From positions 1 through 41,456 of the IMG/VR virus record IMGVR_UViG_3300042330_000991: a stretch of 41,456 nucleotides of DNA; one strand, written 5' to 3'. Positions 742 through 10,816 of this stretch are shown piece after piece. The translations under genes were made by a program, and so were the position numbers. This stretch comes from a virus. Positions within the stretch are counted from its first letter, which is position 1; each line of letters begins with the position of its first letter. The notes beneath the pieces were generated by a model. That model did no database searches, was not told the origin of the DNA, and saw nothing but the letters and a program-made list of their open reading frames with translations.

Positions 742-776
742 AAAAACCCCGCACAAGAAATTGTGTGGGGTTTTTT
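742..776 (+). terminator. rho-independent terminator after head genes
   Basis: A 15-bp stem (742-756 with 761-775, one G-T pair) closes on a GAAA tetraloop and ends in a T-run. It separates the capsid gene block from the packaging block. The matching A-run on the 5' side would let it act in both directions. Confidence 0.9.
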
Positions 777-778
777 GT

Positions 779-786
779 TATATTTG
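779..786 (+). promoter_or_regulatory. TATATTTG -7 box of a probable packaging-operon promoter
   Basis: TATATTTG matches the Bacteroidetes -7 consensus TAnnTTTG and lies just after the terminator. No TTTG is present at the expected -33 distance (19-20 bp upstream), so the promoter is incomplete or activator-dependent. A start about 5-8 bases downstream would begin the transcript at the first base of the long inverted repeat at 791. Confidence 0.45.
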
Positions 787-790
787 AAGT

Positions 791-915
791 GCGCAAACAA
801 TCCTCCTGACATAGGCCTAAAATCTTATGCCAGGGTATCTGCTATGTATATAAAAAGATAGTAGACAACTTCCGAGAGGATTGTTTGCGCAAACGCCCTG
901 GCACCATATTTTTTT
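791..915 (+). ncRNA. structured leader or small RNA with potential pseudoknot
   Basis: A perfect 15-bp inverted repeat (791-805 with 876-890) encloses a hairpin (838-845 with 858-865, one G-T pair). An 8-base strand inside it (828-835, TGCCAGGG) is complementary to 896-903 outside, which makes an A-B-A'-B' pseudoknot topology. Strand 827-834 can instead pair locally with 805-812 (7 of 8 pairs), so two folds compete. A run of seven T (909-915) follows five bases after B'. This looks like a small RNA or an attenuator-type leader of the packaging genes. No known RNA family is recognised. Confidence 0.55.
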
Positions 916-921
916 ACTGCT

Positions 922-1155
922 ATGACAGATAATATTTTTGTTGAAAATCTTCTTCGCAAGATTTATCAATGTACAGAACAACTCACCAATACTCCTGTTA
1001 CCACAACAGATGTTGCAGAGTTGTTACAACTCCACAATACGCATCTGGAGGCTCATGAGGTAAATACCATTATGGAGAATATTGGCTTTATTGGCCGCTC
1101 CATCCAAAACCAAGCAGATAAGCTATGGCTAGTGGTACAGGCTGAAAAGTCTTAG
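922..1155 (+). CDS. small hypothetical protein (77 aa)
   Basis: The ATG at 922 follows directly after the T-run of the structured leader. The product is a 77-residue, mostly helical protein with DVAELL and HEVNTIMENIGF segments, which could form a small winged-helix or helix-turn-helix like fold; this is only an impression. Its stop codon TAG (1153-1155) runs into one of the GTCCTTT repeats. First gene of the packaging block; function unknown. Confidence 0.7.
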   Translation: MTDNIFVENLLRKIYQCTEQLTNTPVTTTDVAELLQLHNTHLEAHEVNTIMENIGFIGRSIQNQADKLWLVVQAEKS

Positions 1156-2745: not shown

Positions 2746-3377
2746 GTAGAGAAAATGTATTTGAGCGCGTTGACCGCATGGTTGATGTGGCAGTAAAGCA
2801 CTTTAAAAGTGGGCGCAATGCAAAAGAACTACCAGAGGAAGTTGCCAATGTGTTTGAACGTTGGGAAATGGCCTACCGTACCACTCGCAAGTATTACCAA
2901 CGCGGCAAAGATTATATCTTTTCTGTTTACGCCATTTGGATAAAAGAAAGGCATGGAATAACTGATGAGCGCACCATAAGAGAGGATCTATATGCCGCAC
3001 CTCTCCTATTTGTTAAAATTGAACCAACAAACCGCGAGTTTAAAAGAATGTTAGCCATTGAAAGGTTAGAAAAATCTATCCTTAAAGCAGAAATTGCTGA
3101 TAAGTATGCAGAGCAAGCTCGCCTTGAAGCTGTGTTGTTTAAATATCTTGACCCAACAGATGATCCAGTAAAAGACATGGATATGGATGAGGTTGCTCAA
3201 AACTTTAATATTATGCCTGCCTTTAACCCTAAATTACTAGGTGTTGAAGAAATATCATTAGAGCAAGTATTGAAGTTTAAAAACAAAATGATGCAAAAGA
3301 AAAAGCGCATCCTGGATGAAGTTGATGAACCAGAAGTAATACAATCCGAGGAATTAGAAAATGAGCAAACTAATTAG
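2742..3377 (+). CDS. hypothetical packaging-block protein, possible small terminase partner (211 aa)
   Basis: ATGA-coupled to the previous gene, and its 3' end overlaps the large terminase start by 17 bases. The 211-residue product is helical and highly charged, with an aromatic basic segment near residues 45-65 (YRTTRKYYQRGKDYIF) that could contact DNA, and an acidic tail (EVIQSEELENE). Tight coupling to the large terminase suggests that it, rather than or together with the 97-aa protein, forms the DNA-recognition subunit. Confidence 0.6.
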   Translation: MSRENVFERVDRMVDVAVKHFKSGRNAKELPEEVANVFERWEMAYRTTRKYYQRGKDYIFSVYAIWIKERHGITDERTIREDLYAAPLLFVKIEPTNREFKRMLAIERLEKSILKAEIADKYAEQARLEAVLFKYLDPTDDPVKDMDMDEVAQNFNIMPAFNPKLLGVEEISLEQVLKFKNKMMQKKKRILDEVDEPEVIQSEELENEQTN

Positions 3378-5028
3378 CCAACCAAGAGAAATTTATTACA
3401 ACCCCGTGCAAATGAAGGTTAACACCATCAATGCCCGGAATACAATATTAATTGGCGGTCGTGCCCTTGGTAAAACTACTGGCATCCACGGACCCCGCAC
3501 AAGCTCATGTTTGGTTAAAATGCCAGGATCTAGTAATGCATTTATTTCGCGTACCTACAAGCAATTTAAAACCCGCATACTTGGCTCACTTGTTAGTGGT
3601 TGGAAGGATTTAGGCTTTGAGGAGTTTAATGAAAAAACGGGCAAAGGCCATTTTATGATTGGCAAAAAGAATAAGCTTTGGCCATCGCCTCAATATGCTA
3701 TTGGAGATTATACCCAAGCCATTCACTGGTTTACTGGAGCTGTTATTGTTTTGATATCACAAGATAGAGCTGGCGATGCCAACGGATCTAATATTCAAAG
3801 CTTGCATGGCGATGAAGCTTTTCAATTAGATAAAGAAGATTTGGATGAGAATGTAATACCTGCCTTGCGTGGCTTGCCTGTATTCAGCACTTTGTCAGAA
3901 TACAGATCAATAACCCTTACCACTTCCATGCCACTCACTCCAGATGCTGCATGGATTTTTGATTATGCAAAGGAAACAGACCCCGAAATAAATGAGTACA
4001 TAATGCAGGTGTATGGTGCGTGGTACAAGCTATACATGAAAATACTCAATGAAAAGGATCAATTTACAGAGCGAACATTGCAAACCTATCAAATGCAGCT
4101 CAAAAAGCTTGATTTCCTGCTTAATGACCTGCGCACAGATTATACCTATTACCTTGAAGCAGATAGCTTTGAAAACTACCATGTACTGGGCGAAAAGTAT
4201 TTTAGAACCCAACGCCGCATATTGAGCCAAGAGAAATGGGAAACCCAAATAGAAAACAAACGCCCTGCAGGAATTACTCCAGGGAAAAGATTCTACCCTC
4301 AGTTAAACACCAAACACTTTTACATAGATTACAATAACCCCTTCTTTGATCAGTTTATTTACCTGCCCGAGGATAAAGATACCTGCTTAGGTGATGCAGA
4401 TTGTAACCGCCACCAACCACTGGAGATAAGCCTAGATTTTGGCGGACGTATTAACTCAATGACAGTATGGCAAGACAAATTGGATAAGGATGAAATGTGC
4501 ACACTAAAGGAGTTCTTTGCCGAGCAACCAGAGTATTTGCAGCACTTAATAGAACGCTTTAATAAGTATTACCAAGCAATGGATTGCCGTAAGCTTATTG
4601 TGTACTATGATGTAAATGGAAAGAAGCACATTGCCCAATCGGATCAAACCGATATCCAAAGCGTTCAACGCATGCTCGTAGATCATGGATGGGATGTTGA
4701 GTTGGTGGATATAGATACCAACCCTATGCATGATGATAAGTTTGAGTTTATTAACCTAATGCTAAGCGAGCAAGACAGAAGGTTGCCAAAGTGGAGAATA
4801 CATGAGGCCAACTGCCCTAACTTAAAGATAGCCCTGTTCAATGCCCCTCTTAAAATAAATGAGAGAGGTAGAAAGGTGAAGAACAAGAACAGCGAGCGCA
4901 TGGAGAGCAAGACCCCACAAACTCAGGCAACACACATAACAGATACCTGTGATTACATATTATTCCGTAAGTACAGGCCAAGAATTGAGGAAGCCGTAAC
5001 CGGTTATGGTACTACTATCTTTGGGTAA
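3361..5028 (+). CDS. terL: terminase large subunit
   Basis: ATP-driven DNA packaging motor and headful nuclease. The 555-residue protein has a Walker A-type loop GGRALGKTT (32-40), a Walker B region ending LHGDEA with Asp151-Glu152, and a C-terminal RNase H-like nuclease with Asp359 in ISLDFGG and Asp417 in YYDVNG. Length is normal for the family. The start overlaps the preceding gene by 17 bases. After its stop the late operon is broken by a GC-rich gene-free stretch and an accessory cassette before the portal gene. Confidence 0.9.
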   Translation: MSKLISQPREIYYNPVQMKVNTINARNTILIGGRALGKTTGIHGPRTSSCLVKMPGSSNAFISRTYKQFKTRILGSLVSGWKDLGFEEFNEKTGKGHFMIGKKNKLWPSPQYAIGDYTQAIHWFTGAVIVLISQDRAGDANGSNIQSLHGDEAFQLDKEDLDENVIPALRGLPVFSTLSEYRSITLTTSMPLTPDAAWIFDYAKETDPEINEYIMQVYGAWYKLYMKILNEKDQFTERTLQTYQMQLKKLDFLLNDLRTDYTYYLEADSFENYHVLGEKYFRTQRRILSQEKWETQIENKRPAGITPGKRFYPQLNTKHFYIDYNNPFFDQFIYLPEDKDTCLGDADCNRHQPLEISLDFGGRINSMTVWQDKLDKDEMCTLKEFFAEQPEYLQHLIERFNKYYQAMDCRKLIVYYDVNGKKHIAQSDQTDIQSVQRMLVDHGWDVELVDIDTNPMHDDKFEFINLMLSEQDRRLPKWRIHEANCPNLKIALFNAPLKINERGRKVKNKNSERMESKTPQTQATHITDTCDYILFRKYRPRIEEAVTGYGTTIFG

Positions 5029-10728: not shown

Positions 10729-10800
10729 CGCAAGATGGAGCAGAGGTAGCTCGCTGGGCTCATAACCCGGAGGTCAGAGGTTCGAATCCTTTTCCTGCAA
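10729..10800 (+). tRNA. tRNA-Met (CAT), initiator type
   Basis: A 72-base cloverleaf: acceptor 10729-10735/10793-10799, D stem GAGC/GCTC, anticodon stem 10754-10758/10766-10770 with CAT at 10761-10763, T arm AGAGG-TTCGAAT-CCTTT, discriminator A at 10800, no encoded CCA. Three initiator marks are present: C1/A72 unpaired, three G:C pairs next to the anticodon loop (GGG/CCC), and a purine-pyrimidine 11:24 pair (A:T). A second mismatch (A5/C68), a wobble at 28:42 and a 7-base D loop make it slightly irregular. It lies between structural genes in the late operon. Confidence 0.85.
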
Positions 10801-10816
10801 CAATATTTTTTATAAA

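What the first reader, a model, noticed from the sequence alone, without database searches (positions are those of the whole stretch)
779..915. Pseudoknot-capable RNA leader with two competing folds ahead of the packaging genes
Seen: strong terminator, TATATTTG box, then strands A (791-805), B (828-835), A' (876-890), B' (896-903) in A-B-A'-B' order, an internal hairpin (838-865), and a seven-T run at 909-915. Strand B can also pair with 805-812. B:B' pairing lies next to the T-run, so B decides between terminator-like and antiterminator-like states. Inference: an attenuator, antitermination leader or small RNA of a new type. No known family is recognised.
Basis: partly seen in the sequence, partly recalled or inferred. 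Interest (0 to 1): 0.75.

Follow-up and report, generated by a model that had tools for sequence, protein, structure and literature searches.

The report
C4-like antisense RNA leader, phage packaging
Just ahead of the DNA-packaging genes of this Bacteroidota phage lies a real, evolutionarily conserved knotted RNA that starts exactly where transcription is predicted to start; it is probably a very divergent relative of the C4 antisense RNA that phages P1 and P7 use to silence a gene on their own transcript, here placed in front of a small, previously unnamed winged-helix gene.

Summary
In detail: strands A (791-805), B (828-835), A' (876-890) and B' (896-903) are exact complements in A-B-A'-B' order. 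At least 26 other leaders in Bacteroidota phages and prophages keep this architecture with different sequences. Covariation is strong (12-sequence subfamily: 91.8% of cells paired, 20 pairs with compensatory changes, 0/500 shuffles). The predicted transcription start is nucleotide 1 of helix A in 17 of 22 leaders, including the window. The structure lies 2-21 nt upstream of a small ORF, usually a winged-helix protein with no Pfam, PHROG or NCBIfam match.

'No known family' is not right for the group. Five relatives hit Rfam c4-2 below its threshold at the right place and strand. P1's annotated a1-b1-C4-a2-b2-ORF order maps element by element onto the better-conserved leaders. The window's copy is too divergent for any profile to find; it is placed by shared gene, architecture and intermediates.

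Best explanation: a C4-type antisense leader controlling translation of the first ORF, its antisense strand captured in cis by a copy of the target at the 5' end. The attenuator reading is not supported: the U-run is not conserved. New variant of a known kind.

The parts
742..775 (+). strong intrinsic terminator that insulates the leader from upstream (head gene) transcription
   Evidence: same arrangement in L002, L006, L036 and L010
779..786 (+). TATATTTG, Bacteroidota -7 promoter element (consensus TAHHTTTG, PMC6847099); predicted +1 is G791
   Evidence: sequence
791..805 (+). strand A, begins at the predicted +1; counterpart of P1 a1-b1
805..813 (+). alternative local partner of B (CCTGACATA pairs with TATGCCAGG 827-835)
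   Evidence: p=0.007 against shuffles; kept with changes in L006
828..835 (+). strand B, 5' side of the stem corresponding to C4 P1
838..865 (+). internal hairpin, at the place of C4 P2; it lacks the GNRA tetraloop found in 18 of 23 leaders
876..890 (+). strand A', complement of A; counterpart of the antisense segments a'/b'
896..903 (+). strand B', 3' side of the stem corresponding to C4 P1, ending 18 nt upstream of the ORF start
909..915 (+). T-run; not conserved in homologues, probably part of the AU-rich initiation region
922..1155 (+). 77-aa winged-helix protein, first gene of the operon; homologues follow most copies of the leader
   Evidence: AlphaFold2 pLDDT 80.8, H-b-H-H-b-b; family by HMM; no Pfam/PHROG/NCBIfam match

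Best explanation
The feature is a divergent C4-type antisense-RNA leader of a Bacteroidota phage operon. Transcription from a host-type promoter starts at G791, the first base of helix A. A C4-like core follows: the B:B' stem (C4 P1), an internal hairpin (P2), and the antisense strand A' (a'/b'). In the nascent leader A' is captured by A, a copy of the target placed at the 5' end (a1-b1), which makes the pseudoknot A:A' x B:B'. The core ends 18 nt before the start codon of ORF 922-1155 and controls its translation. In relatives whose ORF start carries a second copy of the target (A'' = a2), A' can pair with either A or A'', so freeing A' (in P1, RNase P cuts off the upstream part) would block the start codon. 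The controlled gene here encodes a small winged-helix protein, probably a regulator. Shown: structure, covariation, start-site placement, linkage to the small ORF, similarity of relatives to c4-2 and the match to the P1 layout. Inferred: that the window's copy descends from the same ancestor, RNA processing, translational repression, and the role of the protein. For the window no A'' target was found, so whether its antisense strand acts in cis, in trans, or only as a structural block is open.
For: Same architecture in the syntenic gap of distant phages and in many others. Covariation: 8 sequences; 12 sequences, 20 of 32 pairs with compensatory change, 61 cells against 20.9 in shuffles, slid versions 34-44% paired. 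Strand swap test. +1 equals the first base of helix A: offset 0 in 17 of 22, -1 in 4, -2 in 1. A CM built without any sequence that hits c4-2 (R1) finds L087, L088, L089 and a second copy in the L042 phage at E 1e-11 to 1e-15; L089, L087 and L088 hit Rfam c4-2 at E 7.6e-5, 0.0014 and 0.03, and two more leaders at 1.2 and 2.4, all at the correct place and strand. In P1 the order is promoter, a1, b1, C4, a2, b2, icd, ant, with b' in the P3 loop and a' just after P3, as in the clade with helix D (P3, covarying, 100% paired). In the Porphyromonas phages A:A' and A':A'' are both maintained with compensatory changes. A'' overlaps the ORF start in L004, L087 and L089 (each p=0.003), L040 (0.030) and L088 (0.033), with weaker scores in G008 copy 2 and L094. 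Bacteroidota initiation lacks SD and is tuned by structure near the AUG (PMC6847099). In G008 copy 2 the second gene reads like a KilA-N protein (by eye), as kilA lies downstream in P1.
Against: The window itself gives no c4 match even at E up to 10, nor do group I/II representatives L043 and L010; the c4-2 hits in relatives are all below the gathering score (23.5-34.8 against 41). The window lacks the tetraloop and a P3 helix. No second target for A' exists at its ORF start (p=0.076) or elsewhere in the phage. R2 does not find the window. No expression data.
Confidence: 0.6

Rival explanations
1. A self-contained cis-acting translational switch: a 5'-terminal pseudoknot that occludes or exposes the start region of ORF 922, with no released antisense RNA, working like the E. 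coli rpsO or T4 gene 32 leaders (these two from general knowledge).
For: B' lies 16.3 +/- 4.1 nt from the AUG in 23 leaders; helix B extends into the AU-rich start region in L006, L018, L020 and L036 (p<=0.05); local and pseudoknotted folds are of similar energy; no A'' target in winged-helix-type leaders.
Against: Does not explain the c4-2 similarity, the P3-like helix with antisense loop, or the covarying A'' copies in other lineages. Not exclusive of the C4 origin. The helix-B extension is significant in only 4 of 23 leaders.
Confidence: 0.24
2. Transcription attenuator: B:B' next to the T-run acts as a terminator, the alternative pairing as antiterminator.
For: T-run at 909-915 and competing folds in the window.
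Against: T-run of 6 or more in 3 of 23 leaders only; a B:B' stem would enclose a loop of about 60 nt.
Confidence: 0.04
3. Processive antitermination leader (put- or EAR-like) for the late operon.
For: Promoter-proximal structured RNA at the head of a long operon; two copies in one phage.
Against: No other strong + strand terminator between the leader and 16750 in the window; always placed close to an AUG; c4-2 similarity.
Confidence: 0.05
4. Packaging RNA analogous to phi29 pRNA.
For: Located ahead of the terminase genes in the window, L002, L004 and L006.
Against: In other phages it lies after the terminase gene or in another operon; two copies in one phage; phages with a related terminase lack it (Leef_1 and prophages L076-L080, L082; no R1 match in the L074 genome, whose terminase is 83% identical to a carrier's).
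Confidence: 0.02
5. DNA-level inverted repeats (operator, cos or pac site) that only look like RNA structure.
For: Location near packaging genes; a cos-like motif lies nearby in some relatives.
Against: Complementarity is kept while sequences diverge, crossing helices covary, and helix A starts at the predicted +1.
Confidence: 0.02

Closest known systems
C4 antisense RNA of phages P1/P7 (Rfam clan CL00128; c4 RF01695, c4-2 RF02944) with its a1-b1 and a2-b2 sites
   Same: Order promoter, a1-b1, C4 core (closing stem, tetraloop hairpin, hairpin with antisense loop, a' after it), small ORF; antisense strand complementary to a 5' copy; in several relatives also to a copy at the ORF start.
   Different: Host phylum and promoter type; heads a winged-helix gene in the packaging or late region instead of icd-ant; pairing with the 5' copy is up to 15-20 bp and starts at +1; in the window no tetraloop, no P3 helix, no target at the ORF start, no profile match.
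E. coli rpsO (S15) and T4 gene 32 leader pseudoknots (general knowledge)
   Same: A pseudoknot in the mRNA leader near the start codon, with alternative folds, used for translational control.
   Different: Much shorter helices, protein-bound, no antisense relationship to a target copy; unrelated sequences.
Bacteroidota sigma-ABfr promoters (TTTG / TAHHTTTG)
   Same: TATATTTG with predicted +1 at 791 matches the -7 element (PMC6847099).
   Different: No clear -33 element at the leader promoter, which overlaps the terminator stem.

Membership tests
C4 antisense RNA (Rfam CL00128) | Match to the c4 or c4-2 covariance model, window element | tested here: not met
   No c4 match at E up to 10. The window is therefore described as C4-like, not filed as a member.
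C4 antisense RNA (Rfam CL00128) | Match to the c4-2 covariance model, homologous leaders of related phages | tested here: inconclusive
   L089 30.4 bits E 7.6e-5, L087 34.8 bits E 0.0014, L088 30.1 bits E 0.03, L083 24.5 and L090 23.5 bits, correct place and strand, all below gathering 41
C4 antisense RNA (Rfam CL00128) | Core of closing stem P1, tetraloop hairpin P2, hairpin P3 with antisense loop, in that order | tested here: inconclusive
   Met in the 12-sequence clade: B:B', GNRA hairpin and helix D with A' in its loop all covary. Not met in full in the window, which has P1 and a P2-like hairpin only.
C4 antisense RNA (Rfam CL00128) | Upstream a1-b1 copy complementary to the antisense segments | tested here: met
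   A:A' in all leaders incl. the window, starting at predicted +1; P1 a1/b1
C4 antisense RNA (Rfam CL00128) | Downstream target a2-b2 at the start of the first ORF | tested here: inconclusive
   Present in L004, L040, L087, L088, L089 (weaker in G008 copy 2 and L094) and the Porphyromonas phages; not found in the window (p=0.076)
C4 antisense RNA (Rfam CL00128) | Processing by RNase P into a ~77-nt RNA that represses in trans | not testable with these tools
   Needs RNA-seq or northern blot
Intrinsic transcription attenuator | Conserved terminator hairpin directly followed by a U-run | tested here: not met
   3 of 23 leaders have 6 or more U
phi29-type packaging RNA | Present in every phage with that packaging motor, single copy | tested here: not met
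   Absent beside related terminases, two copies in one phage

The most novel reading that the evidence does not exclude
A self-captured antisense RNA: a C4-like core whose antisense loops are held in cis by a decoy target placed at nucleotide +1, the decoy pairing (a1:a', b1:b') being the conserved feature and the downstream target optional. Such leaders would act as modules in front of different phage genes, including a winged-helix regulator that may switch on the late promoters.
Probability: 0.3. Interest if true: 0.75.

Novelty: new variant of a known kind. Interest (0 to 1): 0.6.

Why it matters
C4 RNA is a classic phage antisense system, catalogued from Proteobacteria and their phages (PMC2864571). 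These leaders would place a relative in Bacteroidota phages, in front of previously unnamed small genes in the packaging or late region. They also give covariation evidence that the 5' copy (a1-b1, marked only 'putative' in the P1 record) is a maintained partner of the antisense loops. This makes the role of a1-b1 directly testable.

Tried and rejected
Exact-pattern search for the A/A' inverted repeat in viral contigs: none. DNA similarity of the leader region to phage records: none. Relatives through the 77-aa protein or the terminase alone: none; an alignment of distant terminases worked. A CM scan of 395 genomes drawn across the phylum found only the known prophage, and of 397 genomes of one family four: the subfamily model is narrow. 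Attenuator, antitermination, packaging-RNA and DNA-operator readings were tested and set aside. The winged-helix protein as activator of the GTCCTTT promoters: co-occurrence is not strict. Structural matches of the protein are generic winged helices (best Z 7.1, ASFV I73R, Zalpha, Fur and others), so no function follows. A second antisense target in the window: none above shuffles.

Full report
What the window is. The window is a virus record with a direct terminal repeat of about 196 bases (bases 1-196 recur at the end), so probably a complete phage of 41.26 kb. The gene at 3361-5028 is a large terminase related to those of Polaribacter, Cellulophaga, Flavobacterium and Porphyromonas phages. 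The feature lies between the last head gene (526-714) and ORF 922-1155, the first gene of the cluster that leads to the terminase.

The observation. The region folds far better than shuffles (z -4.7). The nested minimum-energy fold uses the alternative partner of B; replacing it by B:B' gives a pseudoknot of similar estimated energy.

Homologues. The syntenic gap of a Microcystis-associated phage and of Cellulophaga phage Ingeline_1 holds the same arrangement with different sequence. A terminase profile brought in 48 viral loci, and a simple descriptor (-7 box, then A-B-A'-B') found many copies, with clearly fewer and lower-scoring hits in shuffled loci. I curated 23 leaders including the window, later found four more, and recognised a longer version in Porphyromonas phages. 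In a strand-swap test own A:A' and B:B' scores average 26.1 and 21.4, against 10.6 and 10.7 for partners from other leaders; the strands were picked for complementarity, so this test shows that the pairing is leader-specific, while the aligned counts below are the stricter control. In the best-aligned clade (12 sequences) the complete model, including an extra helix D that crosses A, has 91.8% of cells paired, 20 of 32 pairs with compensatory changes, and 0 of 500 shuffles as good; sliding the partners by 1-3 columns drops pairing to 34-44%. In that clade the alignment was made from sequence alone, not fitted to the structure. The window is not in that alignment; its own close pair is L006 (84% identical columns), where single compensatory changes in A and in B can be read by eye.

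Start site. In Flavobacterium the -7 element spans -12 to -5 (PMC6847099). Counting from the box, +1 falls on the first base of helix A in 17 of 22 leaders and within two bases in the rest. For the window it is G791. The descriptor limited where A could start, so the match is partly selected, but an exact offset of zero was not imposed.

The downstream gene. Most leaders are followed by a small ORF of one family, recognised by an iterated HMM. The model of the window's protein is a winged helix (pLDDT 80.8); no Pfam, PHROG or NCBIfam family matches, and structural matches are generic. Other leaders (L004, L040, L087, L089, L094, the second copy in the L042 phage) precede different small proteins without Pfam matches. 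The unit lies before or after the terminase, and one phage has two copies, so it is a module and not part of the packaging motor. Several related prophages keep the winged-helix gene but lack the RNA.

What it is related to. No leader reaches an Rfam gathering score, and the window shows nothing of the C4 clan at E up to 10. But L089, L087 and L088 match c4-2 (RF02944) at E 7.6e-5, 0.0014 and 0.03, and two further leaders weakly, each on the right strand and spanning the B to B' core. L087, L088 and L089 were found with R1, a model built only from leaders of groups I and II, whose tested representatives do not themselves match c4-2, so the chain from the terminase-linked leaders to c4-2 was not circular. 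The annotated P1 record reads promoter, a1, b1, C4, a2, b2, icd, ant; its C4 folds into a closing stem, a tetraloop hairpin and a hairpin with b' in its loop, followed by a'. The clade with helix D has the same parts: B:B' as closing stem, a GNRA-capped hairpin, D with the inner part of A' in its loop, the outer part of A' after it, and a 5' copy of the target whose two parts come in the a1-b1 order. Literature on C4 (PMC5320573) describes RNase P processing at the 5' edge of the closing stem and blocking of the target's ribosome-binding site.

The target copy at the ORF start. A' can also pair with the start region of the ORF in L004, L087 and L089 (each p=0.003), L040 (0.030) and L088 (0.033), with weaker scores in G008 copy 2 (0.060) and L094 (0.072). 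In the Porphyromonas phages A:A' (100% paired) and A':A'' (95% paired) both show compensatory changes. This follows partly from A and A'' being near-repeats, but keeping both copies in step with A' is what a C4-type competition predicts. In most winged-helix type leaders, including the window, no such copy is found.

Mechanism. The best reading is a C4-type leader that controls translation of the first ORF. What is shown is the structure, its conservation, its predicted start and its linkage; processing, repression and the role of the protein are inferred. For the window the link to C4 rests on shared gene, shared architecture and intermediates, not on a profile match, so I put it at about 0.6. 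A purely cis-acting switch without a released antisense RNA is the main rival.

Attenuation is unlikely because the U-run is not conserved. Antitermination lacks terminators to bypass: the scan finds no other strong + strand terminator between the leader and 16750. A packaging RNA is contradicted by copy number, position and absence beside related terminases.

Novelty. A divergent, Bacteroidota version of a known phage antisense system with a new genetic context: new variant of a known kind.

Noticed in passing
window 1154, 7977, 10646, 16781, 18133, 38138, 38639 (+): [TA]GTCCTTT followed after exactly 24 nt by TTTG, seven times on the + strand and never on the - strand, at gene ends or in intergenic gaps; 0.005 expected in shuffles. 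It looks like a phage-specific (late?) promoter in which the usual -33 box is replaced; also in many related phages.
   Followed up: partly
L018, L020, L078, L079, L080, L082 upstream of the winged-helix gene; L003/L072: A cos-like motif, roughly GTCATA(t/c)CGTTATAGGT(c/t)ACGGCG, lies between the terminase and the leader or winged-helix gene; the Leef_1 record ends in the similar GGCCACGGCGTTGT.
   Followed up: no
window 922-1155: A winged-helix protein family that is in none of Pfam, PHROGs or NCBIfam, conserved next to terminase genes of Bacteroidota phages.
   Followed up: partly
L083 3161-3317 (-), phage of L042: Second copy of the leader in the same phage, before a 73-aa ORF and a gene whose product reads like a KilA-N protein.
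   Followed up: yes
Porphyromonas phages L030, L032, L034, L035, L037, L041, L046, L048: A longer leader (about 190 nt) with three covarying copies A, A', A'', the last just upstream of a start codon.
   Followed up: partly
window 10729-10801: A tRNA-Met (CAT) gene inside the structural gene cluster.
   Followed up: no
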